Shown in pieces: positions 1-59,126 of a stretch of DNA of 64,000 nucleotides. Under the pieces are notes generated by a model that saw nothing but the letters and a program-made list of their open reading frames with translations, did no database searches and was not told the DNA's origin. Position 1 is the first letter of the stretch; every line of letters begins with the position of its first letter. Source of the stretch: Platanthera guangdongensis. Lineage: Eukaryota > Streptophyta > Magnoliopsida > Asparagales > Orchidaceae. Where the stretch lies: positions 122,695,900 to 122,759,899 of the forward strand of contig CM077158.1 of NCBI GenBank assembly GCA_039583875.1, written 5' to 3'. A program made the translations under genes and the position numbers.

Positions 1-294
1 TGTCGGGATCCTCGACACGCCCGTGTTCGTAGGCGTGTCACGCATAACCGCCACGGCAACGGACACGACCCATCAGGACACGGGTAGGGACACGGGTTGG
101 CACACGCCCGTGTCGGATGACACGCCCGTGTCATCCGGCCGTGTTCCTGGTCGTGTCCTTCTCGGGTTGGAAACGACCAAAAATCACAAGCCAGACACGG
201 CCTTGGACACGCCCGTGTCCTAGGCCGTGTACCCCTACAGGCACCAAAACTCTTTTTCCGCGACCGACTCGCACACAAAATTCGGGGCGTTACA
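1..294 (-). mobile_element. Gypsy K: start of an LTR (fragment)
   Basis: Read on the minus strand, this begins at 294 with TGTAACGCCCCG, the same kind of LTR start as elements A, E and H. The right flank (TATTG at 295) continues the LTR of element C, so K is inserted in C. The rest of K lies left of the window. No coding sequence is visible. The LTR is filled with inverted GACACG/CGTGTC words very like those in the LTR of H, so K and H are probably related families. Confidence 0.7.
30..235. repeat. Palindromic-word array, GACACG/CGTGTC type
   Basis: Repeated inverted half-sites GACACG and CGTGTC occur, often as the imperfect palindrome GACACGCCCGTGTC or GACACGGGCGTGTC, separated by 8-25 bp of unrelated sequence. 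The spacers are not alike, so the word and not a long unit is repeated. The array lies close to the LTR start (U3 side) of K. Confidence 0.85.
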
Positions 295-979
295 TATTGG
301 CCCTTTAGAGGTCACTTGACCCTTAAGTAGGGTACCTAGACTACTTTAGTGCTAGAGTTGACTTTGGTCAACTTAGCCTTTTTGGTTGGCCCCAATGGGT
401 CCTTGGTGACCCGTTGGCCTCTCACTATGGTTATGAAGGTATGTGTGGGGTCCACTTGGCTAAGGGGACTTCAATTGGCCCTTGTGTAGGCCAGTTTGAC
501 CCAATGTAGGCTAGGTTGACCCACTTAGGGTTAGAGTTGACTTTGGTCAACTTAGCCTCTTGGATGGACCCCAATGGGTCCTAGGTGACACCCATTGACC
601 TCACTCTAGGGTTAGGTGGGCTTGGGTGGGGTCCACTTAGCTTGGGGATGGTCAATTGACCCTAAGTAGGTTGGTTTGACCCATTTAGGGTTAGGGTTGA
701 CTTGGGTCAACTTAACCCTTTTGACTGCCCTCCATGGGTCCTTATTGATCTAATGGATCTTACCATGGTTTGATGAGAACATGGTGGGGTCTTGAAGTCT
801 TGGTGAAGCCCCATGGTTATCTTTAAACAAAGGTTCAGGAATTTACTATTTGCAGACCATAGTGGTCTCACCAACATTCTTAGGTTTCCTTGGTCTTCTT
901 GGGCTTCCTAGGGTTTGTTCATGACCTAGTCATGGACAATAACCACACTTAGGGGTCTAGTTGGAAATGGGATGTTACA
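295..979 (-). mobile_element. Gypsy C: 5' part of an LTR (fragment)
   Basis: On the minus strand the LTR starts at 979 with TTGTAACATCCC and reads into text homologous to the plus-strand LTR of J from 47498 (shared stretches around ACTAGACCCCTAAG and CCCTAGGAAGC). It is cut at 295 by the K insertion. The right flank at 980 resumes the LTR of A exactly where the second A LTR reads through (21440), so C is inserted in A's 5' LTR. Confidence 0.75.
310..735. repeat. Diverged tandem subrepeats rich in TTGAC cores
   Basis: Three diverged units of roughly 150-180 bp each contain an inverted GTTGAC...GTCAAC pair (near 358, 537 and 688), with further TTGACC or GGTCAA cores between them. I count about a dozen TTGAC cores on both strands. 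TTGAC[C/T] is the W-box bound by WRKY factors (known). Function here is inference. Confidence 0.7.
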
Positions 980-2205
980 ATTTCTGCATGCCGACTCTTG
1001 GGTTGGGGTAGGTGGTGGAGTTTTGGTGGCCTCTGGAGGGGTGGTTTTATGTGGAGAGCTGTGGCCACCATCTTTTGCCCCGGTTTGGGTTGGTGTGTGT
1101 GGGACCCTAAAGCTGCCACTGTTTGACCCCTTAGCCCTTTTTGGGTCTGATTTTGGTTATGTATTCAGATCCATGTTTTGACCAATGCCACTTGCTCACG
1201 TGTTAGGACTGTTAGTCCCTTTCCTGATTATGCTTTCCTTTCTTTTGGCATATGAATATGTCTTGATGCTATTGCAAGCTCTCTCTTGGTAAGGCATTTT
1301 GGTTTTATTGCTCGCACTTGGTGTGCTCTGCGGTGTTTTTGACAGCATTCTTTTCTTACTATCATCCCCTTTTCTTTTGCTTATTGCAGTTTGTTGCCGG
1401 GTTGGTAAACCCTTCTTCTTATTTTTGCTAATTAATTTATTGCTCTATTTTACCTCTTGATTGTTTCCTTGCTGAGGTGTTCCTTTCTTGAATGCCTCAG
1501 GTCCAGGTTCTAGCCAGTTCAGCGGCTAGTTCTTTTGGAGGGGCTGTTGGTGGCCTCTAGGGTTGCTGAGATAGCTGATCCCCGTTTTGTTGTGAGGTAG
1601 TTCCTTACTTTTCTGTATAGACATACATACTCGCCAGTGGGTTCGTGTCAGGTTGTTGATGCCCACTGGTGGCTCCTTATGATGCTGGATATGAAATTAA
1701 ACTGCTGATTTTGCCTTTTCGTGGCTGGTTACTTGCTTTTGGGAAGGATTTATGCTAGGTTGCATGTTAGATATTTTAAAACCTAAAAGTAATGCTATAT
1801 GTACTTCATGCATAACATGTTTTCTAAAACAATGACACTATTTTTCCTCAGCGTAAAACACTATCTTTTATACCTATAATATTCACCTTAGAGTCGTGCA
1901 TACCATGAGTCGTCCCCCCGAGGACTCTCGTGCTTATTTAGGGTGTCAATTTAATTGAACCAAAGTATTTTCTGCTGCGTATAGATATAATTTTACCTGT
2001 GGACTAGCTGATCCACTGTGCCGAGGGATGCGGCCATCCAACTTAACTGATTTTCTTTCATAATTAATCAACGTGTTTCCCTAAAATCTAAGTTATGGAG
2101 TTTGCCTGAGCGTGTGCAGTTATCCCCTGCACAACGTGGCATCACGGCACTTGTTTTCTCTTACTCTGATACGATTTTACCGTTGAGAAAATGCGGGTTG
2201 TGACA
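980..2205 (+). repeat. 5' LTR of gypsy A (3' 1.2 kb only)
   Basis: Nearly identical to 21440-22666 in direct orientation and ends in GGGTTGTGACA just before the PBS. The first 1.6 kb of the LTR, including the position of the GTGTCGACAC array, is missing because C is inserted at 979/980. ORFs in this stretch are not supported. Confidence 0.9.
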
Positions 2206-2207
2206 GT

Positions 2208-2218
2208 TGGTATCAGAG
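2208..2218 (+). other. Primer binding site of gypsy A (tRNA-Met type)
   Basis: TGGTATCAGAG lies two bases after the LTR end. It is the standard plant PBS complementary to the 3' end of initiator Met-tRNA. It fixes the LTR boundary and the plus orientation. Confidence 0.92.
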
Positions 2219-2362
2219 GGAGGTTGCTTGACAAATGGTTGGGCAACCTTTCCCTTGTCTGCTTTAGTAGTTGGCATCATACCATTCACACACCGATATG
2301 TCATCAGCACGTCTTGGCTGAAGCACGAACACTACACTCATGAGCATAAGAAGTATACAGGG

Positions 2363-2392
2363 CATATTATGTAGTATGGGATGCATAATATG
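2363..2392 (+). promoter_or_regulatory. Leader hairpin 1 of gypsy A
   Basis: The stem CATATTATG (2363-2371) pairs perfectly with CATAATATG (2384-2392) around the 12-nt loop TAGTATGGGATG. The same loop recurs in hairpins 2 and 3 with different but still complementary stems. A packaging, dimerisation or translation signal in the genomic RNA is inference. Confidence 0.75.
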
Positions 2393-2425
2393 TGTTGTAT
2401 ATGGATCCACCATAGGAGGCAACAT

Positions 2426-5331: not shown

Positions 5332-6841
5332 TGTTGGAACACCCTATTACTAATTTGGGTCAGGATCACTATGTCTCTAGGAATCTTTTCTTGACCTTAT
5401 GTATAGCTTAATAGGTCAATTAGAATTGAGTCTAAGGGTTAGAAGTCTAGGATTGGAAGCTGCCCTGAAGACCAAGTTTTTCAGACTGGAGACTAAGTCT
5501 GATCGTCGAGCTCAGCACGACGATTTGTCGAACTCAGATCGACGATCGTCGAGCTCAACTTCGACAGATCGTCGAGCTCCACTTGATGATCGCTGAGCTC
5601 AACTTCATAATATCATCGAACTCCATTCGACGATCGGTGAGCTCAGTTCGACGATTTTGACTCTGCCTTGGATCTTTATCTATGAGCTCAGTTCGACGAT
5701 CTTTGAGCTCAGATCGACGATTATTTTGCTGCTTGAGTTTTCCAGTTCGCTGAGCTCAGCTCGACGATAGCAGAACTCAGTTCGACGATTTCAGATAACT
5801 TCCAGAATTCAAATTCAAATCAGACAGGAGTTATTATGCAATTAATTCAGAGATTTGCTAGCCGTTTTCATTTATTTCTGGACCAAGTTTCTAGGGATCT
5901 TTCAAGGAATAATTCTGTGGACTTTCCTCTAGAAGAGATTATGCAATTAAGGATGCAATCTATGCAGACCAACGGCTATCTTTGACAGAGAATGATATTC
6001 TATTCTGGAACAGAGAATAAAAGACAGAATGTTTTTTGAATCAACAGAGATTAACAAGAAGAGAACACACAATACAGAGTATAGAGACTCTTTCAAAATC
6101 TTCTGTCAAAAAGAATTCTGAAGAACACTCATCAAAAGATCAAGCTTTCAAAATCTCTTCATCTTTCAAAGTGTTCAAGGCCAACATCATTTCAAGACTC
6201 CAGACACTCAACATTTCAGCAATTGTTGAAACCATCTATTGCTGGAGTTCTACCTTTGAAGGCCTATCACCCTCAGCAAAGCTTTTCTTCCTGAAGATTT
6301 CAAGGATTCAGGGGGAGCTTTGACATCAATCCACATAGTCTTCTAAGTTGTTTGAGAAAGAGAAGACTGCCATCACTCTCTCACCCCCAGTTTGTAAAGG
6401 GTTTCTCAAACTCCCTTCAAAAGTTTGAATCTGGTTTTTGAGCACCTTGTCAAAAGCTCATTGGTGGCAAGACACCTGATCAAAAAATCTGCTTTGGTTT
6501 TTGAGCACCTTATCAAAAGCTCATTGGTGCCCAGGACACCTGATCAACTCATCCTGCAGTGGATTCCTACCTAGGGTGGTAGAAGAGTGGATGTACCCAA
6601 GTTTGGGGAACCACTATATTTCCTTGTGTCCTCTGGCACTGCTTGTTTACTTTTTGTTTCTGGCCTTGATTTCTCTGTGCTTAGTTTTTGCATATCTTAG
6701 TTCTGTGATTAGATTTATATTTTCTTCCCTGCTCACACTTATTACAACAATTGTTGTAAAAGTTTTTAAAAGTACTAAAACACCATATACTCTATTTCCC
6801 CCCCCCCCCTCTAGAGTATATCAGATCTAGTTGCACTTTCA
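5332..6841 (+). repeat. 5' LTR of copia B
   Basis: Begins TGTTGGAACACC and ends ACTTTCA before the PBS. Contains a palindromic-word array (5508-5790), only a weak TATA-like ATAAAAG near 6014, and the C-run just before CTCTAGAGTATA near the 3' end. Apparent ORFs (6036-6323, 6501-6830) recur unchanged in position in the 3' LTR and look non-coding. Confidence 0.95.
5508..5790. repeat. Palindromic-word array, ATCGTCGA/TCGACGAT type (B 5' LTR)
   Basis: About ten half-sites of GATCGTCGA, TCGACGAT or GTTCGACGA recur, many paired head to head across 7 bp such as GCTCAGC or ACTCAGA. The inner part often makes GAGCTC. The 3' LTR array differs at several positions inside the words (for example TTGATG versus TCGACG). 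Confidence 0.85.
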
Positions 6842-6974: not shown

Positions 6975-9051
6975 ATGGCCCAAAACAAAGATTATGCTAG
7001 CACCAGACCTCCAGTGTGCAATCTTTCCAAGTTTTCACTTTGGAAAGCAAGGATTAGACTTTACATGAATTCTATTGACGAAGATATTTTCAATTCTGTT
7101 TTGACAGTGTGTCCAAGACCCCCAGAGAGCACAAGCACAAATGCTGTTCCACCTCCATCAGGAACAGATGCTGACATCAAAAAATGGAAAGTAGCTGATG
7201 CCAAGGCTATGAACATCCTAGCCCAGACAATGTCAGATGACATATTCCAAAAGGTAGCTGAATGCAACTCAGCCAAGGAGATTTGGGACAAGCTCTCAGA
7301 AATTGTCTCAGGCTCAGCTGATGAGAGAAAGGACAGAAGATCCCATCTCATCTCCCAATATGAGAACTTCAAGAAGGGAGAGACTGAGTCAGTGGGAGAC
7401 ATGTACAACAGATTGAGTCTAATTGTCAGTGAGCTAAGGACATTGGACAAAGAGATTTCTCTGACAGAACTTAATGACAAGATCCTAATGTGCTTCCCCA
7501 GCACTTGGGATTCAAGAATCTGGCCAATTAAGGATGCCAGAAGTCTAAATGAGATCACCACTGAAGCCTTGTTGGGTAAGCTCAAATCTTATGAGCTACT
7601 CATCAAGAATAGAGAGGAAGAACAGAAGGCTGCTTCACCAGCCACAAGGAAAGAGAAAACCATAGCCTTCAAGGCAACTGAGGATCTGCCTGAAGATAAG
7701 AGCACAGGACAATGATGAACTACTCAGCTTGTTGGCCAAAAGATTCTACAAGATGGCCAGAAAGGACTTCAGAAGAAGATCATACAAGGAGCAGGACAAG
7801 CCAAGGTATGACAAGTCCATTAGCAACAATAAAGACATTATCTGCTTTGGTTGCAGGAAACCAGGGCACATAGTTCCTGACTGTCCAGAGAACAAGACCA
7901 AGGACAGAAGGGACAGAAAAGAAAGAAGAAAGGAGAAAGACTCCAAAAGGAATGGAAATGGCAAGCCCTCTTCAAGCAAAAATAAGCATACAAGAAAAGG
8001 GTTTGTTGCTGAATCCTGGAGTGAGACAGAAGAGGAATCAGAAGCCTCATCCAGCTCTAGTGATGATGAGGATGATGCAGAAGAAAAGGAATTCTGCATG
8101 ATGGAAATTAATGCCTCGCAGCATAATTCAGAGGATGAAGAGTCAGAGTCAGACTCAGAAACCCAACCTGAAGAAGATCAGGTAATTAGCTCTTTTGATT
8201 TTACTTCAGAAGATTTTAAATCTGAATTTAAAGCACTGTGTTTAGACCTGCTAAAGTCTGAGAAAGAGATTATCTCTCTCAGAAATCAATTATCTGAACA
8301 CAATGGTTTAAAGTCAGAAAACCTCAAACTCTCTCAGGAGTTGGAGAACTGTAGGGAACAGATAGCTACACTGAAAAGTGAGCTCTCTGAGGCCAAGAAG
8401 CTTGAAGAATCCCTTAATGGGAGAAGCATCAAGCTGATGGACATCACAAGCACAGTGAACTCTAGATTCAACAGTACACTGGGCTTGGGTGCTTCATCCA
8501 GCCAACCTATAGTCCTAACAACTCCCATCAAGTTTATTTCTAACAAGGGAAAGGGAGTTGTAGAGGTTGCCAGGAAAAATTCTGATCTGCCTCAGAAAAC
8601 TGAGTCCCAGCAAAAATCGTCGAACGGAGATCGACGATCGCCGAATGAAGATCGACGATCGCCGAACACATATCGGCGATCTCAGGAAAAATCGTCGAAC
8701 GCAGATCGACGATCTCAGCCAAAGTCGTCGAACGCAGCTCGACGATCTCATATACCTGACCTCAGCCATAGTCGACCGTCGAACGGAGCTCGACGATCTA
8801 ACCCAAGATCGTCGAACGCAGCTCCAAGATCGTCGAACAGAGGTCAGAACTCTGGAAACTTTTTCAAAGGCAAATCAAAATTGAATCCTAAGGGTTCTTC
8901 ATCCCAAACCTTTAACCCTTATACTGAATGGATTTTACCTCCAAGGAGATATCATCCTGAAGGATATAAGAGTCAGCCAGGGATGTCTTTCATTTCTGAA
9001 TTTAGAGGTTATCAACCTAGGCCCAAGGTAAACTGGGTCAAAAACAAGTAA
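6975..9051 (+). pseudogene. gag: gag of copia B, one frameshift
   Basis: Gag polyprotein forming the particle. ATG at 6975 (MAQNKDYASTRPP) is chosen because the gag fragment of element G matches from the next residue. The copia UBN2-type capsid block (WKARIRLYMN, EIWDKLSE) runs to about 7700; a single-base shift near 7700-7712 moves the frame, and coding continues as DELLSLLAKRFYKMARKDF. A zinc knuckle CFGCRKPGHIVPDC follows (about 7843-7884), then an acidic Ser/Glu stretch, a leucine-rich coiled coil (8210-8420), and a region where the palindromic DNA array is translated as repeats of SSNxDRRS. It ends at TAA 9049, just before pol. Confidence 0.88.
8612..8848. repeat. Palindromic-word array inside gag coding sequence (B)
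   Basis: Eight or so copies of ATCGTCGAAC and AGATCGACGATC in the same word language as the B LTR, but here read in frame as SSNGDRRS, SPNEDRRS, SSNADRRS and similar. The array stays open in frame with no stop. It lies only 200 bp upstream of the pol start. Confidence 0.85.
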
Positions 9052-12299: not shown

Positions 12300-12560
12300 T
12301 CTGAACTACGCTCGACGATTTCCCCTAAGATCGTCGAACGGAGATCGACGATTTCCCGAATCGTCGAACTGAGTTCAGTGCCTCTCAGATAGTATGAACT
12401 ATCTCTTCCGGTCAACGATCGTCGAACGGCGCTCGACGATTATGTTCACTGAACGATCGTCGAACGGAGCTCGACGCTTTCCAAGATCGTCGAACGGAGA
12501 TCGACGATGTTGGAGTCTCTTCAGATTCCTTTAGAAGCCTCGATCGTCGAACTGAGTTCA
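12300..12560. repeat. Palindromic-word array between pol and ORF3 (B)
   Basis: At least seven copies of the 23-bp hairpin-like unit: ATCGTCGA, a 7-bp spacer (ACGGAGC, ACGGAGA or ACTGAGT), then TCGACGAT. Separators are 10-40 bp. The array ends about 30 bp before a TATA-like box and about 155 bp before the ORF3 ATG. Confidence 0.88.
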
Positions 12561-12591
12561 ACGATCTTTCCAATTCTGCGTCAAACCCTAA

Positions 12592-12600
12592 TATAAATTA
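12592..12600 (+). promoter_or_regulatory. TATA-like box upstream of ORF3 (copia B)
   Basis: TATAAATTA lies 116 bp before the ORF3 ATG and directly after the palindromic array. Element D has a better box (TATAAATAG) at a matching place. An internal promoter for ORF3 is inference. Confidence 0.5.
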
Positions 12601-12687
12601 AACTCATTTTTCGCCGTCGTTCTCTCTTGCGCTTTCGATTTCTCTGCAAGGATTTTCTTTCCCTCCAAACAGTTCTACGCTTGGTCA

Positions 12688-12710
12688 TTTTGTTTGTTGA
12701 ATTTTTGCAG
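12688..12710 (+). promoter_or_regulatory. Possible splice acceptor before ORF3 (copia B)
   Basis: A pyrimidine-rich tract ending TTTTTGCAG occurs five bases before the ORF3 ATG (ACAATGGC, a good plant start context). It would suit a spliced subgenomic ORF3 mRNA. The alternative is transcription from the TATA box at 12592. No donor was identified. Confidence 0.4.
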
Positions 12711-12715: not shown

Positions 12716-15700
12716 ATGGCTGTGTCAGTTGCAGTTCTAGCCGCCATGAAGTTCGATGCTGGATTCGACATTGATCTGGAATCTTTCAACACTACTGATC
12801 AAATATTCCAAGACATTCTGAGTTTATTCAAGGATCAGAACTTGTCTGCCCTCATGACCACCAGGATAAAGCTGGCCTCAGATGAAATCAAGGAATGGGT
12901 TTACACTGCTCATAATCTGGATAACTCTACAATAGTTGGGTCCATTGCTGGAACTCAGGTACCTCTGACCCCCACCATTTTAACAGAGGTTTTTGGACTA
13001 AGGAATGGAGAAGAATCTGCTGAGTTATCTGGGGAGGAGTTTTCTGACATACTTGCCAGGATGGGTCATCCAGAGGGAAACACTAGCAAGCTATTCAAGA
13101 GGAATCTATCTGTTGAATACAGATTCCTGGCCGATGTAGTAGGAAAAGTGCTGCTGGCAAAGCACTAAGCTCATGATACTATCTCCAGACATCAGCTCTA
13201 TCTCATGGGAGCTCTGGTGGATAAGAAAAGTTTGAACTGGGGAGAGGTCTCCTTTGACCTAATCAAGAAGAAAATCAACAAAAGCTTTGTTAATTTTGGA
13301 AGGATTCTTGGAGTCTTCCTGCAGACAAGGTGCCCTGCCTTGCTGGTCTCCTCTGGAGTTCACATTAATGCCTCCAAGAGACTTACCTGTGCCCTCTTTG
13401 GCAAGTGGGACAGGCAAATAAGCAAGCCCAGCAGACCCTCCTCTAGTGCTCCTTCAGGCACCAGGACTCATGAAGTCACTCCCCCACAGGTCTCTGCTCC
13501 TGCAGAAGACCTGGCTGCTGCTGTTGCTGCCTCTTCTCCTCCTCCTATTCCAACCCTACCTCTTCCATCCACCATTCCAGCTTCATCCCCCATTACCATA
13601 TCCAGCCCATCTCCAACCTCAACTCCATCTCCAGACCCAATTCTACCTCCACCTGCAGACCATTTCCACCCACTGTTCTCCTACCCTCCTCCAGATGTCA
13701 CTTCTTCTCCCTCCATTCCATCCTTCACTCTCTTGGATGACTCCTACATGGATGATTCCCCCTCATCTCCTCCTGAGTTACCCTCCTCCTCCACATCTTT
13801 TCAAGATCTCCTCCTCCACATCATTGACCAACCAACATTCACTCCATCCATATCCATCCCCTTGTCCTCCATCTCCACCATCCCCATACCTCAGCCATCC
13901 ATCCCTCCACTCTCCAGCCCTCCACTTCCAGCATCCTCAGCTATCCCTATTCCATCTACCTCTGCTCTTGTGGTTGAGCAAGTAGACCTCTCAGCCCTAG
14001 CTGACAGGTTGTATGAGCTAATTGCCCCCAGGCTCTCTCTATTATTAGAGACCTCCTTAGCTCCTCTACAACAGTCAGTGGCAGCTCTCTCTGCCAGGCT
14101 TTCCTCCCTCCTTCATCAGGCAGCACCTCCAGCAGTGTGCCTTGATACAGATGTATCTGCATATAGGCAGGGGGAGATGCCATATGAAGCAAGCTTTCAT
14201 GCTGTTGCTGCTGCTGTCTCTGCTCCTGCTGTTGATGATACTGCTGCTGCTGCTGATGTTTCTGTTTCTGCTACCTCTGCTCCTGCTGCTGTGCCTCCTA
14301 CTCCAGTTCTGGCACTAGACCTAAAGTCTTTGCTCTCAGCCTTTGATACTGCCTTTTTCAGTTGTTTGCCTAAGAGTAATGATGTCCAGCCCTCAGAAGA
14401 CCTGTCCAAGGCACTGGTGCCTTTCTCTGGCTGTGACCCCAGCATTATATCTTCTTTAGTACTCTCAGTAATTGCTGCTACTGCTGCTGTTGAAGAAAGG
14501 ACTGTTTTTGCTGCTGCTGAAAATATTCTTACTGCTGCTGAAATCCCAACTGCCTCTGATGAGCAGATATCCAAGGATTTTCTGATGACAGAGGCCACTG
14601 ATTTTGAGCCTGCTGCAGATTTTGTTGATGTTACTGAAGTTGCTGCTGCCATCACTCCTGCTGTTGCTGTTGTTGGTTCTGCTTCTCCTCCTATATCTGT
14701 TGCTGAATCTGCTGCTGTATTTGTTGCTGTCTCTGCTGCTATCCCTGCTGCTGCTATTTCAGCTTCTGTCTCTTCTGCCTCTGCTCAGCTGAAGAAAGAC
14801 TTGATGAAAAGAATAGATGCTTTATATGATGATCAGAGCTCTGAATCTGATGAATACAAAACAGACTCTGATGATTCATCTGCTACTATTGCCAGAAAAA
14901 GGAAAGCTAGGAGCAAGGCTATGAAAAGGGTTCCTCCTGCAAAAGTCAAGGATAATAATGATATTCCTTATTATATTCTGCATAACTGCCCCATCACAGA
15001 ACATTGGATGCAATATTCTAAAAATCAGCTCAAGGCCATGAAGAAGAAGAGAAAGTATGAAAAGGGCTCATCCCAGTTCCAGCACCCTCATCCTCCTCCA
15101 CCACCTCCTCCTGATGCAGGTGCAGGTGTCAGCTCTGCAAGTCAAGCCCCAGCTAGAAGCCAGGCTCCCTATCAACCCCATGCCAGATCCTACCAAAGGG
15201 AAAGCCAGTCTAGGGGTTCTTATTCTAGGAGAGGAGGATACAGGGGAAATCAGAGAGATTTTCAGGTTTATTCTAAAGGGCATTCCAGGCAGCACCCATA
15301 CTCTAGGGGAGGACATGTTTCATCTGATACTACTTCTGGTCCATTCCCATACAAGCTAAAAGAGACAGTGTCTGCCAGGCCTCCTCAAGACAATTCTTCC
15401 AACAGGTATGAGCCACCTGTACCATTTGAGGACCCTGAAAAGAATCCATCTGCTTGGACTGCTAGGATGAAGGAGTTGGCTGCACTAGATCAGATCAAGA
15501 AGGCCAGAGAGCAAGGCTTAGATTCTTCAAATATTTCTACAATGTCAGAGCAGAGACAGAAGGAACTAGAGAAATATGCCTCCAGTAAATTCTTTGATGC
15601 AGACAGATATATGGAATTGCATCCTGCTGCTGTGGTTCCCAGGTATTCAAAGCAAACCTATTTGGGTGCAGCAGATGACACCAGGTCCAACAAGGAAGCC

Positions 15701-15751
15701 CTAAACCCTAACAGAGAAATCAAGATGGTTAAAGGCAAAGAGAAGAAGTGA
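12716..15751 (+). pseudogene. Third ORF (SIRE 'env-like' ORF3) of copia B, one stop
   Basis: Protein of about 1011 codons downstream of pol; function unknown. ATG at 12716. Residues 1-235 form a folded-looking domain (EIKEWVYTAHNLDN, STIVGSIAGTQVPLT, NWGEVSFDLIKKKI) of the type found after pol in SIRE-lineage elements. TAA at 13166 interrupts it, in frame. Then come a Pro/Ser-rich stretch (13440-13980), alanine-rich GCT runs (14190-14780), a basic cluster RKRKARSKAMKR that could be a nuclear signal, seven prolines near 15095, an Arg/Gly-rich part (SYSRRGGYRG) and a conserved C-terminus (FFDADRYMELHPAAVVP) shared with element G. I see no transmembrane segment or signal peptide, so a true envelope is not supported. 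Confidence 0.8.
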
Positions 15752-15948: not shown

Positions 15949-17455
15949 TGTTGGAACACCCTATTACTAATTTGGTTCAGGATCACTATGTCTCTAGGAA
16001 TCTTTTCTTGACCTTCTGTATAGCTTAATAGGTCAATTAGAATTGAGTCTAAGGGTTAGAAGTCTAGGATTGGAAGCTGCCCTAAAGACCAAGTTTTTCA
16101 GACTGGAGACTAAGTTTGATCGTCGAGCTCAGCACGACGATTCGTCGAACTCAGATCGACGATCGTCAAGCTCAACTTCGACAGATCGTCGAGCTCCACT
16201 CGACGATCGCTGAGCTCAACTTCATAATATCGTTGAACTCCATTCGACGATCGGTGAGCTCAGTTCGACGATTTTGAATCTGCCTTGGATCTTTATCTCT
16301 GAGCTCAGTTCGACGATCTTTGAGCTCAGATCGACGATTATTTTGCTGCTTGAGTTTTCCAGTTCGCTGAGCTCAGCTCGACGATAGCAGAACTCAGTTC
16401 CACGATTTCAGATAACTTCCAGAATTCAAATTCAAATCAGACAGGAGTTATTATGCAATTAATTCAGAGATTTGCTAGCCGTTTTCATTTATTTCTGGAC
16501 CAAGTTTCTAGGGATCTTTCAAGGAATAATTCTGTGGACTTTCCTCTAGAAGAGATTATGCAATTAAGGATGCAATCAATGCAGACCAACGGCTATCTTT
16601 GATAGAGAATGATATTCTATTCTGGAACAGAGAATAAAAGACAGAATGTTTTTTGAATCAACAGAGATTAACAAGAAGAGAACACACAATACAGAGTATA
16701 GAGACTCTTTCAAAATCTTCTGTCAAAAAGAATTCTGAAGAACACTCATCAAAGAGATCAAGCTTTCAAAATCTCTTCATCTTTCAAAGTGTTCAAGGCC
16801 AACATCATTTCAAGACTCCAAACACTCAACATTTCAGCCATTGCTGAAACCATCTATTGCTGGAGTTCTACCTTTGAAGGCCTATCACCCTCAGCAAAGC
16901 TTTTCTTCCTGAAGATTTCAAGGATTCAGGGGGAGCTTTGACATCAATCCACATAGTCTTCTCAGTTGTTTGAGAAAGAGAAGACTACCATCACTCTCTC
17001 ACCCCCAGTTTGTAAAGGGTTTCTCAAACTCCCTTCAAAAGTTTGAATCTGGTTTTTGAGCACCTTGTCAAAAGCTCATTGGTGGCAAGACACCTGATCA
17101 AAAAATCTGCTTTGGTTTTTGAGCACCTTATCAAAAGCTCATTGGTGCCCAGGACACCTGATCAACTCATCCTGCAGTGGATTCCTACATAGGGTGGTAG
17201 AAGAGTGGATGTACCCAAGTTTGGGGAACCACTATATTTCCTTGTGTCCTCTGGCTCTGCTTGTTTACTTTTTGTTTCTGGCCTTGATTTGTCTGTGCTT
17301 AGTTTTTGCATAGCTTAGTTCTGTGATTAGATTTATATTTGCTTCCCTGCTCACACTTATTACAAAAATTGTTGTAAAAGTTTTTAAAAGTACTAAAACA
17401 CCATATACTCTATTCACCCCCCCTCTAGAGTATATCAGATCTAGTTGCACTTTCA
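15949..17455 (+). repeat. 3' LTR of copia B
   Basis: Direct repeat of 5332-6841, ending ACTTTCA at 17455 and followed by the duplication GAGAC. Differences from the 5' LTR are mostly single substitutions, plus a shorter C-run near the 3' end (about 7 C versus about 13). Confidence 0.95.
16115..16405. repeat. Palindromic-word array, ATCGTCGA/TCGACGAT type (B 3' LTR)
   Basis: Counterpart of 5508-5790. About six of the by-eye LTR differences fall in the words, some restoring and some damaging complementarity (for example TTCGACG to TTCCACG near 16399). Confidence 0.85.
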
Positions 17456-19823: not shown

Positions 19824-22666
19824 TGTAACGCCCCCGGTTTTTCAGTGCTTTGTTTGATCTTTGGCTTGCGTTACGATGGCGTATTTCCTGCTTTTTGTCG
19901 TTGTAGAGCGTGGTCTTAGCTCTTAGGGTTCCCTGTGTAGCCTGTTTGTAGCCTGTTAGCAAGATTCCCCAGCTAGCCGGAGTCCGTTTGATGACTCGGT
20001 TGGGCCTCTTAGGGAATTCTTGTGTTTTGGCTTCGGGAGGTGTTATCCCGGGTTTTGTTCGTCGAATGCTAATTTCGACTTCGTAGTTGTGTTCGTAGCG
20101 TGGTTTTTTAGCTGCGGCGTAAATTTCGTCTTTTTCCGAGAAGTTTCGGGTTTCGGGTTGTTTTGATATTGGGTGTAAATAATAATTATTATGTTGATTG
20201 TTTATTATTAAAACTGATATTTATAGTCTTGGGTCAGAATTAGGGCTGGGTTCCTTTTCTCCTTTTCCTGTGTCTCTTCTTGATAGAAGCCGCCGCCTGT
20301 GCGTGAGGAAGAGAACCGTCGGACTACCCTAGCCTTCGGACGCCGATTCCTGGAGATTTAGCGGTCGGAATTCAGTTTCGAGAGTGGATCTGGACTGCCC
20401 TCGCCGGGATCTGCATTCTTTCTGCTCCTCAGCTTGCTGCTCTGCGGCCAGAGCCGTGAGCGGGGGAGGCCGCCGACCAAGTTTTCTGGTATTTAGGCAA
20501 GTGATGCCCCCTCATCCTTGCCAAAGCTGATCTTTGTCTTTCTTTCGAATTAATTTTTATCTCTTTCTTGTTTGGATCTTAGGTGTAAGCTAGGGCTTGT
20601 TCCCGATTATACCGTGGTTAGTGTAGAAGGTTCCAGTTAAATCTCAATTTTCCTGAGGGGTTGTGTCTATTAGGGACAGTTTTGGTTCGGTCTAGGTCGA
20701 GTAGTTACCATTGCCGATGGAGGTTGTACTCGAGAGAGAGAGAGAATCCCCGTTCTCGTTTTTTGGTCGTTTGCTGGATCTGGCTCCTGTAGCCAGCTGG
20801 GGTGTCGACACTGTTGTGTCGACACCGGCCAGTCTTGGTCGACACCGGCCAGTCGTGGTGTCGACACTTGGTGTCGACACCAGCAGCGGTAGTGTCGACA
20901 CCATGTGTCGACACAGTCCGCAGTGGTGTCGACACTTGGTGTCGACACCAGCAGCGGCAGTGTCGACACCTTGTGTCGACACCGGCCGCAGTGGTGTCGA
21001 CACTTGGTGTCGACACCAGCAGCGGCAGTGTCGACACCGGCCGCAGTGGTTTCGACACTTGGTGTCGACACCAGCAACGGTAGTGTCGACACAAGGTGTC
21101 GACGCCGGCTGCAGAGGTGTCGACACTTGGTGTCGACACCAGCCGCGGCAGTGTCGACACCTTGTGTCGACACCGGCCGATGTGGTGTCGACACTTGGTG
21201 TCGACAACGGCCGCGGTTGTGTCGACACCTTGTGTCGACAACGGCTTGTCGTGGTGTCGACACATCGTGTCGACACTGGTGATGCGCTTGTTTTGGGGTC
21301 AGGTAGACTCGGGGTTGGTTCGGGTTAGGCGTGCAAGGCCGCGTCGGCTGGACCCGACGTTTTTTGTCTTGGGTTTGTGTGTTTCTTAGGATTGTTAGAG
21401 TGACTTTTTACCTAGGGGGAGGCATTGGGTGTTCGACTAATTTCTGCATACCGACTCTTGGGTTGTGGTAGGTGGTGGAGTTTTGGTGGCCTCTGGAGGG
21501 GTGGTTTTATGTGGAGAGCTGTGGCCACCACCTTTTGCCCCGGTTTGGGTTGGTGTGTGTGGGACCCTAAAGCTGCCACTGTTTGACCCCTTAGCCCTTT
21601 TTTGGTCTGATGTTGGTATTGTATTCAGATCCATGTTTTGACCACTGCCACTTGCCCACGTGTTAGGACTGTTAGTCCCTTTCCTGATTATGCTTTCCTT
21701 TCTTTTGGCATATGAATATGTCTTGATGCTATTGCAGGCTCTCTCTTGGTAAGGCATTTTGGTTTTATTGCTCGCACTTGGTGTGCTCTGCGGTGTTTTT
21801 GACAGCATTCTTTTCTTACTGTCATCCCCTTTTCTTTTGCTTATTGCAGTTTGTTGCCGGGTTTGTAAACCCTTCTTCTTATTTTTGCTAATTAATTTAT
21901 TGCTCTATTTTACCTCTTGATTGTTTCCTTGCTGAGGTGTTCCTTTCTTGAATGCCTCAGGTCCAGGTTCTAGCCAGTTCAGCGGCTAGTTCTTTTGGAG
22001 GGGTTGTTGGTGGCCTCTAGGGTTGCTGAGATAGCTGATCCCCGTTTTGTTGTGAGGTAGTTCCTTACTTTTCTGTATAGACATACATACTCGCTAGTAG
22101 GTTCGTGTCAGGTTATTGACGCCCGCTGGTGGCTCCTTGTGATGTTGGATATGAAATTAAACTGCTGATTTTGCCTTTTCGTGGCTGGTTACTTGCTTCT
22201 AGGAAGGATTTATGCTAGGTTGCATGTTAGATATTTTAAAACCTAAAAGTAATGCTATATGTACTTCATGCATAACATGTTTTCTAAAACAATTACACTA
22301 TTTTTCCTCAGCGTAAAACACTATCTTTTATACCTATAATATTCACCTTAGAGTCGTGCATACCATGAGTCGTCCCCCCGGGGACTCTGGTGCTTATTTA
22401 GGGTGTCAATTTAATTGAACCAAAGTATTTTCTGCTGCGTATAGATATAATTTTACCTGTGGACTAGCTGATCCACTGTGCGAAGGGATGCGGCCATCCA
22501 ACTTAACTGATTTTCTTTCATAATTAATCAACGTGTTTCCCTAAAATCTAAGGTTTGGAGTTTGCCTGAGCGTGTGCAGTTATCCCCTGCACAACGTGGC
22601 ATCACGGACACGTGTTATCTCTTACTCTGATACGATTTTATCGTTGAGAAAATGCGGGTTATGACA
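19824..22666 (+). repeat. 3' LTR of gypsy A, full length
   Basis: 2843 bp from TGTAACGCCCCC to GGGTTATGACA. The GTGTCGACAC array occupies 20802-21273, roughly 1.0-1.45 kb into the LTR. A TATA-like stretch (TATTTATAG near 20217) lies upstream of the array, so the array may be transcribed, unlike in other elements here. Followed at 22667 by the gag of copia D. Confidence 0.92.
20802..21273. repeat. GTGTCGACAC array with strict 13/21-bp alternation (gypsy A LTR)
   Basis: About 27 copies of the 10-bp perfect palindrome GTGTCGACAC. From 20858 the start positions run 20858, 20871, 20892, 20905, 20926, 20939, 20960, 20973, 20994, 21007, 21028: steps of 13 and 21 in alternation, a 34-bp module. The 3-bp spacer is TTG, CTT, CAT or AAG; the 11-bp spacer alternates mainly between CAGCAGCGGCA and CGGCCGCAGTG, giving a 68-bp higher-order unit. 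One 13-bp step is missing after 21028. Because the word is self-complementary, all frames on both strands translate as VDT, CRH or VST repeats. Confidence 0.95.
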
Positions 22667-26838: not shown

Positions 26839-27245
26839 TGTCGACATTCTAGAGAAATGATGTCGACACATCTAGTAAGTCAGTGTCGATACTTCAGAGA
26901 AGTAGTGTCGACACATCCAGAGTAGGTGTCGACACATCCAGAAGTGGTGTCGACAATTAGGTTCAACACAGATTTCGTCGAGTGGAGTATCGACTAATCG
27001 TCGAGCGCAGATGTATAAGTGTCGACACATAAGTTATGTCGACTATATTGGTGTCGACACATAGTAGTCAACACCATTGTCGAGACTTAAGTAGTCAGTA
27101 TCGACACTTTTCAACAGTGTCGACACATTTAGAGGAATTTGACGTGCCTTTTCACCTTCGTTTTTAGAAAGGTATAAATAGGTTCACAACATTGTCTGTC
27201 GACACGCTTTCTATAGTTTCGAGACTAAAACTTTGTGTCGACATA
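26839..27245. repeat. GTGTCGACAC array between pol and ORF3 (copia D)
   Basis: About 15 copies or near-copies of (G)TGTCGACA(C), irregularly spaced by 15-40 bp. Near 26975-27010 there is also TCGTCGAGTGGAGTATCGAC and TCGTCGAGCG, which are words of the B type. The array surrounds the TATA box at 27173 and continues to the ORF3 leader. Same location relative to pol and ORF3 as the B array. Confidence 0.88.
27173..27180 (+). promoter_or_regulatory. TATA box upstream of ORF3 (copia D)
   Basis: TATAAATAGG is a canonical plant TATA box 108 bp before the ORF3 ATG (27281), with the palindromic array immediately upstream. It supports an internal promoter for ORF3; no transcript data are available. 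Confidence 0.6.
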
Positions 27246-31060: not shown

Positions 31061-31205
31061 AGTCTAGACACTTTTAGACAGAGACGCTATTTCAAGAAGT
31101 GACTGGATGACTTGACAGCTGCCATTTCTAACCAGTCTACTTCAACTGTCAAAGCTGTCAGAAGTTTGTTAGAAACCGGATCAGCCGGTTACCATGGAGG
31201 AAGAC

Positions 31206-45880: not shown

Positions 45881-46085
45881 GTTTATAAAAAGTTTTGTCA
45901 AAAACGGGTTATTTCGAGCAGTTTTGCGGCAATCCAAAATAGAGGTCTAGGATTACTTCAAATCAAAGAGTGTCCAACATGAAAGTTGTAGATCTCGTCG
46001 AGATGAACAAAGTTCTTGTTGACCGGTTTTTTGCATGACCCCGTTTTGACCCTCAAAACAATGCCCGAACTCAGACTGAAAAGAA

Positions 46086-46245
46086 CCACTCGAGATGAAT
46101 GAACGGGTACTCGAGAGAGAAAACACAGGTACTCGAGAGGAGAAAGAAGCTACTCGAGAGGAAAATACAGGTACTCGAGTCGAATTAGGCGGTACTTGAG
46201 AGAAGAAAACGTTACTAGAGTAGATCCAGGATTCACTCGAGAGGA
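46086..46245. repeat. CTCGAG-word array (gypsy E 5' LTR)
   Basis: Copies of GTACTCGAGAG and ACTCGAGT spaced about 20-30 bp apart, matching 32935-33070; one word has decayed (GTACTTGAGAG near 46192). Confidence 0.85.
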
Positions 46246-52159: not shown

Positions 52160-52490
52160 AAAGTTTAGTCGATCAAAACCTGGATGAAGTTAGTCGACCT
52201 CAGTAAAGCTTTCGTCGACCTAAGCACCAAGTTCATCGAGCTGATAATTCTTCTTCGTCGAGCTGAGCTCCAAAATTGACGAACAAAAAAATGTACTTGC
52301 CAAACTGAGCTCCAAGTTCATCGAGATTAGATGGCACTTGGTCGAGCTGAGGTTCTAATATAAGCTCACAGTTCATCAACCTGAGCTACACGTTCGTCGA
52401 GCTCAACTCATAGAAGGAACTCTGAGTTCGTTGAGCTGATTTCGACGATCGTCGAGATGATTTTAGATATCGTCGAACACATTTTCTGTA
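52160..52490. repeat. TCGTCGA-word array (copia G LTR), decayed
   Basis: Around 12 half-sites such as TCGTCGAGCTGA, GTTCATCGAGCT, TAGTCGACC and TTTCGACGATCGTCGAG, spaced 20-30 bp. Same language as B but with many mutated words, fitting an older element. Confidence 0.75.
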
Positions 52491-54529: not shown

Positions 54530-54574
54530 TGTAACACCCCAAAGTCAAATTGGGTTCAGGCATGGGTGATACGA

Positions 54575-55190
54575 CCTGGGATACGGGCGTGTCCCAGGGC
54601 GTGTCCTGCTCGGGTTGAGCAGATGGGCGCGTGGTCGACGAAATTCGTTCGATGAATTTTTGGGAGGTACACGCCGGTGACACGGACGTGTCAGGGGGCG
54701 TGACCTAGGGCATGTACTCCTTTAGTCTACACCATAGTTTTGGTCGACGAACTGCGCTTGACGATCGTCGAGTATGGGGTACACGGCCTGTGACACAGGC
54801 GTGTCACAGGGCGTGTCTCGCTGTGTCGAGATTTCGACACTTTTTCTCGAGTAAGTGGAAAATTACTCGAGTAAGACGGCGGTGACACTGGCGTGTCATC
54901 CGACACGGGCGTGTCCAATCCGAGTACTCGAGTAGTTGGTTTTCTCTTAAGTAAGTCCTCTCGAGTGGGTCTCGAGTGGGTGACACGGGCATGTCATAAC
55001 TAAAAACTCGAGTAGTCATCTCGAGTAGGTCGTGAATATGAATCGAGTGAGGTACATGCCCTATGTCACGGGCGTGACCTGGTTGTGACGGGCGTATGCC
55101 CTGGGCGTGACCTGTTTCGGGATAAGGCGGTTTGTGCACCGCTTAGAGAACACGACCTGTGACATGGGCGTGTCACAGGGCCTGTCGGAC
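54575..55190. repeat. Composite palindromic-word array (gypsy H LTR)
   Basis: Three word types in one array: GACACGGGCGTGTC and half-sites (many), ACTCGAGT/TACTCGAGTA (about eight, 54845-55035), and GTCGACGAA...GACGATCGTCGAG (54743-54775). The first type is shared with K, the second with E, the third with B and G. Confidence 0.88.
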
Positions 55191-57275: not shown

Positions 57276-58350
57276 GTGTTTCTTGTCCACCTTTTGGTGA
57301 CGCGGAGTGGTGCGGGGCAATCGGAGCCCCAGCGGTCTGATGGAAGTACGACACCAGCTGAGGTGCCGACACCTCCACCATCTACAGAAACTATGCAACA
57401 AATTGCTGAGGCTTTGTTTGTTATGGTTCAAGGACAGCTGGTGGGGCAGGCGCAAGGGCAGGCGCAGTCGTCCGTGAGTCCAGAATAGGTGGAGGCGAGG
57501 CCAGAACCTGTTGTGGCTGTGACTCCTCGAGCCACTGAGAAGCAGTTGAAGCAATTTATGAGCTTTCATCCGCCTATGTTTTCGGGAGTGGGAGCTCCTG
57601 CACAGGTTGAGGATTGGTTATCGCTCATCAAGAGGATCATGACGGCGATTGGGACGGAGGAGCATCAAAAAGTCACCTTAGCCACCTTCTTGTTGGAAGG
57701 CGAGGTGCGGTTGTAGTGGGACGAGATGGAGCTGCATCATGTAGCGGGAATACGTTAACATAAGTGTCGATGGAGGAATTCTCTCGGCTCTTCTTGGTGA
57801 AGCACCTCCTGGCGACACAGCATATAGCCACGTAGAATGAATTCCAAAGGTTGACGCAAGGAGATGACAGTGTGGAAGCTTACCTGCATGAGTTTACACG
57901 CTTGGGGGGTATGCGGGTTCGATTTTGCTGATGAGCAGAGGAAGACGAATAGGTTCTATGAAGTTCTGCTGGAAGAGTTGAGATTCCTGCTTTCTAGTTC
58001 TGTGAACCAAGGCTTCCAAACGTTAGTTGGCACTGCTTGCGTGGTGGAAAACAATTTGAAGAGGGTGCAAGGGAAGAGGGCATTGGCTGTGACATAGCCA
58101 GAATTCAAGGAGCCCCGATCGACGAAGTCATTTTATAAGAAGAAATGGGGCAAGAGGCCCAAAACGGCTGGTCAAGCTCCTTTTTCAGTTGCATCGGGAG
58201 AAACGTCAGGGGCCACCTCAAAGCCGGATACTCGTACGTGCTTCAATTGTGTACAGGTGGGGCATATAGCTCGGGATTGTTGGGTGCCGACAAAGAGTGA
58301 AAAGAATGCGGGAGCTGTTGGGTTTCTCTATAAGGATGGCACAACATTTG
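57276..58350 (+). pseudogene. gag: gag of gypsy H, stops and frameshifts
   Basis: Gly/Gln-rich N-terminus, then MSFHPPMFSGVGAPAQVEDW and ATFLLEGEV (capsid block), with TAG at 57486 and 57714 in frame. Between about 57720 and 57930 the frame shifts twice (FQRLTQGDDSVEAYLHEFTRLGG lies in another frame; RKTNRFYEVL back in the first). A zinc knuckle CFNCVQVGHIARDC is at about 58239-58280. Cut at 58350 by copia I. The true start is uncertain. Confidence 0.8.
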
Positions 58351-58856
58351 TGCACGCAGCGGAAGAATAAAAACATCAAGAAAAACCCAAAAGAGATGGA
58401 ATCGGGCCATGGTAGTTGAATCAAGAAGTTAACATACAACTAGGCAAAAATTACCTCGGTGGCGTTGAGCCACAACTCAACGGAGATGCTCCAAGCTTCG
58501 TGTTCTTGCTGGTGGCGAGTTCTACGTGGAATGATATCCACGTCTCTGCAGAAATCCACACAAGCGGGAGAACACCAACTTTTCCGTCGCACGGATAATC
58601 GGGAAGGAGAATGACCACACCTTGCTTTTCCACGAACTGCTAGGTCCGCGCCAGGAATAGCAACACCAGCGACAATCGCCGGAGAGGAGGAGGTCGACGG
58701 AGCGAGCACGGCGGCGGAACAAGGGTCGTCGGCGTGATTCGGGATCGGCAGAACGAACGAAGAACGGCGGAACACTTCCGTCGCTTTCGTCTTGGTCAAA
58801 GGGCCGACAATCGCATCCGATTCGATCAGAGAGCATTCCCGAAAACCCTAAGTATC

Positions 58857-58864
58857 TATTTATA
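58857..58864 (-). promoter_or_regulatory. TATA box of copia I LTR
   Basis: Minus-strand GGTATAAATAGATAC, an excellent plant TATA box about 170 bp downstream of the GTCGAC words. Confidence 0.65.
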
Positions 58865-58928
58865 CCAAAGGCATAAACAGACTTAGGAATATCGCTATCC
58901 GCAGACCACCCAGAAAATTAGGGTTCCA

Positions 58929-59031
58929 GAATCGGCGAGAATCACCTAGCAGATTCGGTGAGAATCAATCGGCGAGAATCACCTAGGATTGGCGAGAATC
59001 AGTCGGCGAATATCAGTCGGCGAGAATCAGA
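58929..59031. repeat. TCGGCGAGAATCA direct repeats (copia I LTR)
   Basis: Six copies of (T)CGGCGAGAATCA or close variants in 100 bp, some followed by CCTAG. Not palindromic. They lie between the GTCGAC words and the TATA box on the minus strand. Confidence 0.8.
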
Positions 59032-59035
59032 GTAC

Positions 59036-59126
59036 AATACTCGACGATTCACGTCGAACGGGGGTCGACCATACTCGTCGACCCGCGGTCGACGATACTT
59101 GTCGACCCTCGGTCGACTATTCTTAC
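59036..59126. repeat. GTCGACC/GGTCGAC palindromic words (copia I LTR)
   Basis: ACTCGACGATTCACGTCGAAC, then GTCGACC-CGC-GGTCGAC and GTCGACC-CTC-GGTCGAC inverted pairs. A compact version of the arrays in B and G. Confidence 0.78.

What the first reader, a model, noticed from the sequence alone, without database searches (positions are those of the whole stretch)
1..59126. Unrelated retrotransposon families all carry dense arrays of short, family-specific palindromes
At least eight LTR-element families here (A, B, D, E, G, H, I, K) hold arrays of a 6-14-bp palindromic word with unrelated spacers. The words are GTGTCGACAC (A, D), ATCGTCGA/TCGACGAT (B, G), CTCGAG (E, H), GACACG/CGTGTC (H, K) and GTCGACC/GGTCGAC (I). 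Most share the core TCGA; GTGTCGACAC and the GACACG type share TGTC/GACA half-sites. The word, not a longer unit, is what is kept, which suggests selection for a dimeric protein site or local spread of the word. I know of enhancer repeats in the U3 of some plant copia elements (for example Tnt1), but not of such a shared palindrome vocabulary across superfamilies.
Basis: partly seen in the sequence, partly recalled or inferred. Interest (0 to 1): 0.87.

Follow-up and report, generated by a model that had tools for sequence, protein, structure and literature searches.

The report
Shared regulatory word-arrays in plant retrotransposons
Jumping genes of different kinds sitting in one plant genome carry dense runs of the same few short DNA "words", often just before their on-switches; such runs are known for one group of these elements, but here they appear in other groups too, as if several use the same unidentified DNA-binding protein.

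Summary
The arrays are real: each of the eight families has at least one window above the shuffle maximum (E and I only just). Premises need correction. The families fall into about three lineages: Sirevirus-type copia (B, D, G), Ty3/gypsy (A, E, H, probably K) and a classic copia (I). B, D and G fit the published Sirevirus "repeated motif" (RM) boxes (PMC2829016), apart from their core.

New relative to what I read:
(1) Similar arrays in gypsy and classic copia LTRs.
(2) Words cross superfamilies: TGTCGACA occurs only in the A (gypsy) and D (copia) arrays; B's dyad recurs in H (gypsy) and I.
(3) TCGA is 19-fold enriched in arrays; other CG-centred palindromes at most 1.5-fold.
(4) In A and D, words changed 7-10-fold less than spacers within arrays; two LTR pairs show no such sparing after insertion.
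(5) Spacing near 21 bp in A, D, E and G, not in B, H, K, I.
(6) B has an array inside gag.
(7) A TATA box lies between array and env ATG in B and D.

Best reading: binding-site clusters for a probably host-encoded factor. No genome-wide test was possible.

The parts
20801..21276 (+). Array A: 28 GTGTCGACAC-type words, mostly alternating 13 and 21 bp apart, 978-1452 bp into the 3' LTR of gypsy element A (LTR 19824-22668, start TGTAACGCCCC). The 5' LTR of A is truncated at 968 and lacks the array.
5501..5790 (+). Array B in the 5' LTR (5332-6841): dyads ATCGTCGA-N7-TCGACGAT, many with one decayed half
16118..16408 (+). Array B in the 3' LTR
8616..8851 (+). Array B inside the gag coding sequence (ORF 7666-9048): the same dyad read as SSN(G/A)DRRS-like peptides
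12312..12567 (+). Array B upstream of the env-like ORF; TATAAATT at 12592, ATG at 12716
12716..15748 (+). Env-like region of B, two ORFs (12701-13165 and 13169-15748) separated by one in-frame stop
26840..27126 (+). Array D upstream of the env-like ORF; TATAAATA at 27173, ATG at 27281; two more words (27198, 27237) lie after the TATA box
27281..28339 (+). Env-like ORF of D; weak sub-threshold match to PF20167 Transposase_32 (E 6e-5, 23.4 bits against cut-off 45)
30460..31069 (+). Array D in the 3' LTR (30315 to about 32090): 25 GTGTCGACAC-type words; TATATAAA at 31206
32925..33073 (-). Array E, 3' LTR copy: ACTCGAG words about 21 bp apart
46075..46242 (-). Array E, 5' LTR copy (LTR start 46704)
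52190..52475 (-). Array G in the LTR of a Sirevirus-type element (LTR start 52675): TCGACGAA words; TATATAAA at 51910
54588..55184 (+). Array H in a gypsy LTR (54530 to about 57080): three kinds of word, GACACGGGCGTGTC, ACTCGAGTA and two B-type dyads (54634, 54743)
58925..59122 (-). Array I in the LTR of a classic copia element (LTR start 59339): TCGTCGA-N7-TCGACGA-like dyads with GGTCGACC, and TCGGCGAGAATC words; TATAAATA at 58864
14..219 (-). Array K in the LTR of a probable gypsy element (LTR start 294): GACACGGGCGTGTC words

Best explanation
The arrays are homotypic clusters of binding sites (upstream activating or enhancer arrays) for one or a few sequence-specific DNA-binding proteins that recognise dyads, mostly with a TCGA core. 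They sit in the LTR, often upstream of a TATA box. In the env-bearing Sireviruses B and D a second cluster sits upstream of what looks like an internal env promoter. The binder is most likely a host factor, because gypsy, classic copia and Sirevirus elements without shared regulatory genes use the same words. Arrays grow by local duplication, and selection during the element's active life keeps the words while spacers drift. Shown here: clustering, word-only conservation (A and D), sharing between lineages, TATA adjacency at 6 of 9 sites, ~21-bp spacing in four families. Inferred: protein binding, activation, host origin of the binder, cooperative same-face binding.
For: Clustering beyond shuffles. 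Words against spacers within arrays: 2.7/1.9/2.1% against 19.4/16.4/21.3% different (A at two overlapping lags, D), upheld with one-sided conditioning. In the LTR pairs of B and E words are not spared (4.8/5.6% against 1.7/3.3%, p 0.19 and 0.47), so the constraint fits the active phase. TATAWAW within 250 nt downstream of 6 of 9 array sites (B env, D env, D LTR, E, G, I yes; A, B LTR, H no; the two LTR copies of B and of E counted once; the gag row, without TATA, left out; K not examined), background 13.4%, p 3e-4; with the gag row 6 of 10, p 7e-4. TCGA 33.4 per kb in arrays against 1.73 elsewhere; ACGT 1.1/1.27, CCGG 2.0/1.32, GCGC 1.1/0.88. A-D similarity is essentially the words. The B matrix (23 plus-strand B dyads) scores 25.8 in G, 25.2 in H, 17.4 in I; the maximum of 100 shuffles of non-B sequence is 18.0 (95th percentile 14.1), and 0 of 300 own shuffles reach it in each. 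Spacing 20-22 bp: A 14 of 27, D LTR 12 of 24, D env 6 of 13, E 6 of 6 and 3 of 4, G 5 of 8.
Against: No binding, expression or methylation data. A, B-LTR and H have no TATA box where expected, and E's is an AT microsatellite. Spacings of 20-22 bp are rare in B (3, 1 and 1 of 12), H (1 and 2 of 11), K (0 of 4) and I (0 of 4); the 13-bp (A) and 15-bp (D) spacings are off helical phase. K's word has no TCGA. By my own reasoning, A-D sharing of one palindrome is only moderately improbable if words must be palindromes with a TCGA core. In the 8-mer test B-H and B-I did not pass (only A-D, B-G, E-H, G-H, H-K, 5 of 28 pairs; control blocks 2 of 28). I's matrix score is below the highest of 100 shuffles. 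In the A lag-69 comparison 16 word and 12 spacer positions fell in gaps and were not counted. Word-guided template switching could also homogenise words. No factor was named.
Confidence: 0.6

Rival explanations
1. Element-encoded anti-silencing or transactivation, like VANC of VANDAL transposons: the env-like protein of the Sireviruses binds the words in LTR and env promoter, and gypsy and classic copia elements have acquired the words and exploit that protein in trans.
For: Arrays with the same word lie in the LTR and upstream of env in B and D. VANC targets are short motifs in tandem arrays in noncoding regions that vary between related elements, and the VANC6 motif also occurs in the unrelated AT9TSD1 (PMC5735166, passages).
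Against: No DNA-binding domain recognised in the env-like ORFs: only a sub-threshold Transposase_32 match in D and none in B. Both structure models were too poor to use (pLDDT 37 and 44). Element-specific factors would predict private words, whereas words are shared.
Confidence: 0.13
2. The arrays act at RNA level: palindromes fold the 3' U3 and linker RNA into hairpins that help the element or feed small-RNA production, as proposed for maize Sirevirus palindromes.
For: Predicted folding against dinucleotide shuffles, five arrays folded: A z -18.6, D LTR -10.2 (20 shuffles), D env -5.5, B env -3.5. Maize Sirevirus palindromes are small-RNA hotspots (PMC5311732 and PMC10760457, passages).
Against: The fifth, E, does not fold beyond shuffles (z -0.7, 44 of 200 shuffles as good). 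Any array of self-complementary words folds, so z is not independent evidence. RNA pairing does not explain TCGA specificity or sharing of exact words between superfamilies.
Confidence: 0.12
3. Mutational by-product: words are hotspots for slippage or template switching in reverse transcription, so copies join at words and words look conserved without any selection.
For: Arrays A and D have grown by local duplication (units of 34/68/123/191 bp and 122 bp). Word-to-word switching would homogenise words.
Against: Does not explain the same word in LTR, gag and env regions of B, TATA adjacency, or sharing across superfamilies with unrelated spacers. The codon skew in gag (Ser TCG 13 of 19 against 1 of 52; Arg CGA 12 of 16 against 0 of 26) is also compatible with common descent of the units.
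Confidence: 0.1
4. Nothing beyond published Sirevirus RM boxes: the gypsy and I arrays are unrelated enhancer repeats and the shared words are coincidence.
For: B, D and G fit the published RM topology. Short CG-rich words can coincide, and B-H and B-I fail the 8-mer test.
Against: B-matrix hits in H and I beat their own shuffles and the nine best non-B hits lie only in arrays; TGTCGACA occurs 56 of 56 times in A and D arrays.
Confidence: 0.05

Closest known systems
Sirevirus repeated motif (RM) boxes (Bousios et al. 2010, PMC2829016; section 9 read whole, other passages seen)
   [quoted passage not shown] CpG-rich; upstream of a TATA box in the LTR; divergent flanks. B, D and G fit (B's LTR has no TATA found).
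   Different: Core is TCGA, not CGG-CCG (though the paper's Vitis CGGTCGACCG and Tnd-1 ACAATCGATTGT come near). Arrays also occur in gypsy (A, E, H, probably K) and in a classic copia element (I); the paper states RMs are absent from classic (Ty1/copia) retrotransposons. B has an array inside gag. TATA boxes lie between array and env ATG in B and D; [quoted passage not shown]
Palindromes of maize Sirevirus LTRs as small-RNA hotspots (Bousios et al. 2016, PMC4728375, not held; seen only as described in PMC5311732 and PMC10760457 passages)
   Same: Clustered palindromes in the cis-regulatory part of the LTR. [quoted passage not shown]
   Different: Different word (CACCGGACNNNGTCCGGTG); no small-RNA data here.
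VANC / VANDAL anti-silencing targets in Arabidopsis (PMC5735166, PMC10398659; passages)
   Same: Short motif amplified as local tandem arrays in noncoding regions; change between related families; one motif also in an unrelated element.
   Different: The published VANC motifs shown (YAGTATTAY, AGTTGTCC/AGTTGTAC) are not palindromes and the binder is encoded by the transposon; no such gene was identified here.
Enhancer repeats in plant copia U3 (Tnt1, Tto1), recalled; Tnt1 box I symmetry and repeated LTR motifs are mentioned in PMC2829016 passages
   Same: Repeated cis-elements upstream of the LTR promoter
   Different: Fewer copies (arrays of two or three in PMC2829016), not known to be shared between superfamilies (recalled)

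Membership tests
Sirevirus (B, D, G) | Copia pol order (integrase before RVT_2) | tested here: met
   B and D: rve and RVT_2. G's pol is not in the window; G tested only through gag (66%) and env (29-48%) similarity to B.
Sirevirus (B, D, G) | PPT AGGGGGAG 10 bp before the 3' LTR with AT/TG junction | tested here: met
   B and G exact; D has one mismatch (ACGGGGAG) at the terminal PPT but five upstream AGGGGGAG copies.
Sirevirus (B, D, G) | Env-like ORF 3' of pol (present in many, not all, Sireviruses) | tested here: met
   B 12701-15748, D 27182-29341, G env-like remnant 53557-52881
Sirevirus (B, D, G) | RT phylogeny and long gag | not tested
   No reference set; gag length not compared
Sirevirus RM boxes | Palindromic high-copy word in the upper LTR and, with env, upstream of env | tested here: met
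   B and D both places; G in LTR only and mostly one-sided, its linker is only a remnant
Sirevirus RM boxes | CGG-CCG core | tested here: not met
   Words have a TCGA core; CCGG 2.0 per kb in arrays against 1.32 elsewhere. Tnd-1 is a published exception, so this is a variant.
Sirevirus RM boxes | Absent from classic (non-Sirevirus) copia elements | tested here: not met
   Array in I, a copia LTR with PPT AAGTGGGAGA and no AGGGGGAG after pol; further arrays in the gypsy elements A, E, H
Ty3/gypsy (A, E, H, K) | Gypsy gag/integrase domains | tested here: met
   A: Retrotrans_gag, Integrase_H2C2, SH3_Tf2-1; E: Integrase_H2C2, SH3_Tf2-1; H: gag match 27%, E 1e-5. K only by association: 158-bp repeats shared with 47.7-48.3 kb behind a gypsy integrase.
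Tekay clade of Ty3/gypsy (A, E, H, K) | RT phylogeny within Tekay; chromodomain | not tested
   LTR start TGTAACRCCC suggests it (recalled, no call); no reference set at hand
VANC-type anti-silencing system | Element-encoded protein that binds the motif and removes methylation | not testable with these tools
   No DNA-binding domain found by Pfam in the env-like ORFs; no methylation data

The most novel reading that the evidence does not exclude
LTR retrotransposons of different superfamilies in this genome (Sirevirus, other copia, gypsy) have converged on a small common vocabulary of mostly TCGA-core dyads read by the same trans-acting factor, either one host protein or a Sirevirus-encoded regulator exploited by the others. 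Words turn over within a lineage (A and E are related but use different words) yet are shared across lineages, and one family even writes the word into its gag gene. This would be a shared regulatory code among competing transposons.
Probability: 0.35. Interest if true: 0.78.

Novelty: new variant of a known kind. Interest (0 to 1): 0.55.

Why it matters
If unrelated retrotransposons use one factor's binding site, that factor is a common switch for much of a plant's repeat load. Its loss, induction or divergence could wake or silence several families at once, which would help explain shared bursts. It also makes two open questions testable: what binds Sirevirus RM boxes (left open in the 2010 paper read here), and whether the env-like gene has its own promoter. 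Within-array word/spacer divergence, compared with post-insertion LTR divergence, is a cheap selection test that can be run on any genome.

Tried and rejected
Rejected or led nowhere:
- Whole-genome test of the words in the host: 11 identical genome-search requests, none answered.
- Viral contigs for three GTGTCGACAC in a row: 0; for relatives of B's second env-like ORF: 12 stretches, none confirmed. That collection is of viral contigs, so this says little about plants.
- Fold of the D env-like domain with 7 and 11 sequences: pLDDT 37 and 44, so I ran no structure search.
- A and D arrays exchanged as one segment: not supported, spacers unrelated (A against D LTR 60 of 300 shuffles as high; A against D env 28 of 300).
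- Arrays as palindromic insertion targets: PMC6911290 passages (12 of 16 places shown) report only a slight palindrome preference at insertion sites, which would not create arrays.
- Literature. The exact words GACACGGGCGTGTC, ACACGGGCGTGT, CACGGGCGTGTC: 0 papers. GTGTCGACAC, TGTCGACA, ATCGTCGACGAT: 556 papers, and none of the 15 listed titles concerns plant LTR retrotransposons. Searches on palindromes and Sireviruses (20 of 90 listed), Tekay and palindromes (15 of 459), gypsy U3 palindromic enhancers (15 of 20), Sirevirus env promoters (15 of 158), Bousios with TCGA (8 of 8) and chromovirus binding arrays (12 of 31) listed no title on palindrome words shared across superfamilies. Only listings were seen, except the papers named in this report; most of the hits were not listed, and subscription papers are missing from the library. 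PMC3485330 (Retrosat2, passages for five terms) speaks of CTTTTT tandem repeats and multi-copy CCGTCC; I did not search it for palindromes.
- A CBF/DREB-type reader of GTCGAC is recalled from memory; the 10 listed of 21 papers settle nothing by title.

Full report
WHAT IS THERE. The window is a nest of plant LTR retrotransposons. The hits to D's env-like protein are all from the orchid genus Platanthera (5 of 5; 9 of 9 with an alignment). The best hit of B's gag is Platanthera too, the other 4 of 5 being unnamed. The host is therefore probably an orchid or close to one (inference). From Pfam domains, self-comparison, and PPT, PBS and LTR-start signals: B (LTRs 5332-6841 and 15949-17455), D (3' LTR from 30315) and G (LTR from 52675, minus) are Sirevirus-type copia. 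A (3' LTR 19824-22668), E (LTR starts 46704 and 33534, minus) and H (LTR 54530 to about 57080, gag at 57501) are Ty3/gypsy with LTRs starting TGTAACRCCC; K (LTR start 294, minus) is probably gypsy too. I is taken as the LTR (start 59339, minus) of a classic copia element whose pol is at 63879-61138; no second LTR of it is in the window. The clade name Tekay for A, E, H and K is a recalled guess from the LTR start and was not tested.

THE ARRAYS ARE REAL. Searches show local clusters above shuffles. One search examined 319 windows of 400 bp; 39 exceed the highest shuffled count (7). Of these 24 lie on the arrays of this report and 15 on other repeats (low-complexity coding, a 158-bp tandem repeat, parts of the F LTR and others). 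Each of the eight families has at least one; E and I reach only 8, and E's 3' LTR copy none. CpG observed/expected is 0.74-2.0 in the arrays against 0.48 elsewhere.

THE WORDS. A and D: GTGTCGACAC. B: a 23-bp dyad ATCGTCGA-N7-TCGACGAT; G: mostly the half-site TCGACGAA. E and part of H: ACTCGAGT. H and K: GACACGGGCGTGTC (2 exact copies in K, 1 in H, none elsewhere). I: TCGTCGA-N7-TCGACGA-like dyads that contain GTCGACC, and a second word TCGGCGAGAA. Because TCGTCGA and TCGACGA differ by one base, half-site direction is ambiguous where a mismatch is allowed. TCGA is 33.4 per kb in arrays against 1.73 elsewhere, while ACGT (1.1 against 1.27), CCGG (2.0 against 1.32) and GCGC (1.1 against 0.88) are not clearly raised. 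So this is not general CpG or palindrome enrichment. K's word lacks TCGA and is an exception.

WORDS CROSS LINEAGES. TGTCGACA occurs 56 times in the window, all in the arrays of A (gypsy) and D (copia). Between the A and D LTRs blastn finds similarity only over the arrays, and A's spacers are no more like D LTR spacers than shuffled ones (60 of 300) and only weakly like D env spacers (28 of 300), whereas D's own two arrays have related spacers (8 of 300). A matrix from 23 plus-strand B dyads was scanned over the window. Its nine best non-B hits lie in the arrays of G (best 25.8), H (25.2) and I (17.4); the tenth is in the D env array (10.3; 6 of 300 own shuffles as high), followed by scattered hits of 9.7 and less. 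Shuffled non-B sequence reached at most 18.0 in 100 trials, 95th percentile 14.1. I's score is thus above the 95th percentile but below the maximum; against its own shuffles it is 0 of 300, as for G and H. A, E, K and the D LTR have no B-type hit. In a blunter 8-mer test 5 of 28 family pairs stand out (A-D, B-G, E-H, G-H, H-K) against 2 of 28 for control blocks (B-G, D-G, related Sireviruses); B-H and B-I do not pass there. Conversely the related gypsy elements A and E (LTRs 65% alike over 800 aligned bp near their 3' ends) use different words. Words therefore turn over within a lineage and recur between lineages.

SELECTION. Where an array has duplicated part of itself, words differ by 2.7, 1.9 and 2.1% (A at two lags, D) and spacers by 19.4, 16.4 and 21.3%. 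Marking words in only one copy gives 1.5, 1.0 and 0.0% against 16.0, 10.1 and 15.6%. In the two LTR pairs that have diverged since insertion (B, E), words differ slightly more than spacers (4.8 and 5.6% against 1.7 and 3.3%, p 0.19 and 0.47). This fits a constraint that acted while the elements were active. Limits: the two A comparisons overlap; in one of them 16 word and 12 spacer positions fell in gaps and were not counted; only A and D were testable; the LTR pairs are of other families; word-to-word template switching could mimic part of this.

POSITION. Arrays begin 58-978 bp into the LTR. One search examined 12 rows. Counting the two LTR copies of B and of E once, and leaving out the gag array (no TATA), six of nine sites (B env, D env, D LTR, E, G, I) have TATAWAW within 250 nt, background 13.4% (p 3e-4; 6 of 10 with the gag row, p 7e-4). 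A, B-LTR and H do not, E's is an AT microsatellite, and K could not be examined. In B and D a TATA box lies between the env-upstream array and the env ATG (12592 to 12716; 27173 to 27281), although two further D words lie after it. [quoted passage not shown] these two elements show candidates.

SPACING. Neighbouring words are 20-22 bp apart in 14 of 27 (A), 12 of 24 (D LTR), 6 of 13 (D env), 6 of 6 and 3 of 4 (E), and 5 of 8 (G) spacings. In B (3, 1 and 1 of 12, half-sites), H (1 and 2 of 11), K (0 of 4) and I (0 of 4) they are not. About two helical turns would put sites on one face of the helix (inference). Shared duplication history inflates the counts; by family it is 4 of 8, rough p 0.006 under an assumed uniform range of 12-40 bp.

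A CODING ARRAY. B's gag carries the dyad about seven times in frame. Serine is TCG 13 of 19 times there against 1 of 52 elsewhere in that ORF, arginine CGA 12 of 16 against 0 of 26. Three relatives 41-45% identical over 67-97% of the query keep SSNGDRR-like units (P0006, P0007, P0008). The unit is therefore probably old. Whether DNA or protein is selected cannot be decided without the relatives' DNA, and common descent of the units explains part of the codon skew.

COMPARISON WITH THE KNOWN. B, D and G fit the published RM boxes except for the core. The paper says RMs are absent from classic retrotransposons; the I array contradicts that in this genome, and the gypsy arrays extend the pattern to another superfamily. 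The 2016 maize paper on palindromes and small RNAs is not held and is known here only through two later papers. VANC targets resemble these arrays in how they evolve, but no element-encoded binder could be shown.

LIMITS. One 64-kb window, one copy of most families, no binding, methylation, small-RNA or genome-wide data. Structure prediction of the env-like domain failed. Array limits and LTR starts used were set by me from the sequence.

Noticed in passing
296-756 and 47684-48277: A diverged ~158-bp tandem repeat rich in TTGACC/GGTCAA lies next to LTR K and, in the other orientation, behind a gypsy integrase fragment (46706-47315): probably the 3' internal region of one gypsy family.
   Followed up: partly
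12701-15748: B's env-like gene is broken by a single in-frame stop after 155 codons of the open frame; its second part is rich in proline, serine and alanine with CTG/CTC-type low-complexity repeats.
   Followed up: no
8616-8851: Regulatory-type dyads embedded in gag, read as SSNGDRRS-like repeats that three distant relatives also carry.
   Followed up: partly
54530-55184: LTR H mixes three words otherwise found in K, E and B/G, like a mosaic of vocabularies.
   Followed up: partly
22668 and 32090: D has no 5' LTR in the window: element A's 3' LTR appears to abut D's gag region directly, and D's 3' LTR ends against E's 3' LTR, so D was probably truncated by a rearrangement.
   Followed up: no
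26974-27010: D's env-upstream array contains one or two decayed B-type half-sites (ATCGTCGAGCGCAGATG), perhaps a relic of an older word replaced by GTGTCGACAC; the matrix score is marginal (6 of 300 shuffles).
   Followed up: partly
37430-39240 and 42144-43950: F, a short element with 1.8-kb LTRs 97% alike; its clustered words are not of the TCGA type, so it may serve as a negative control.
   Followed up: no
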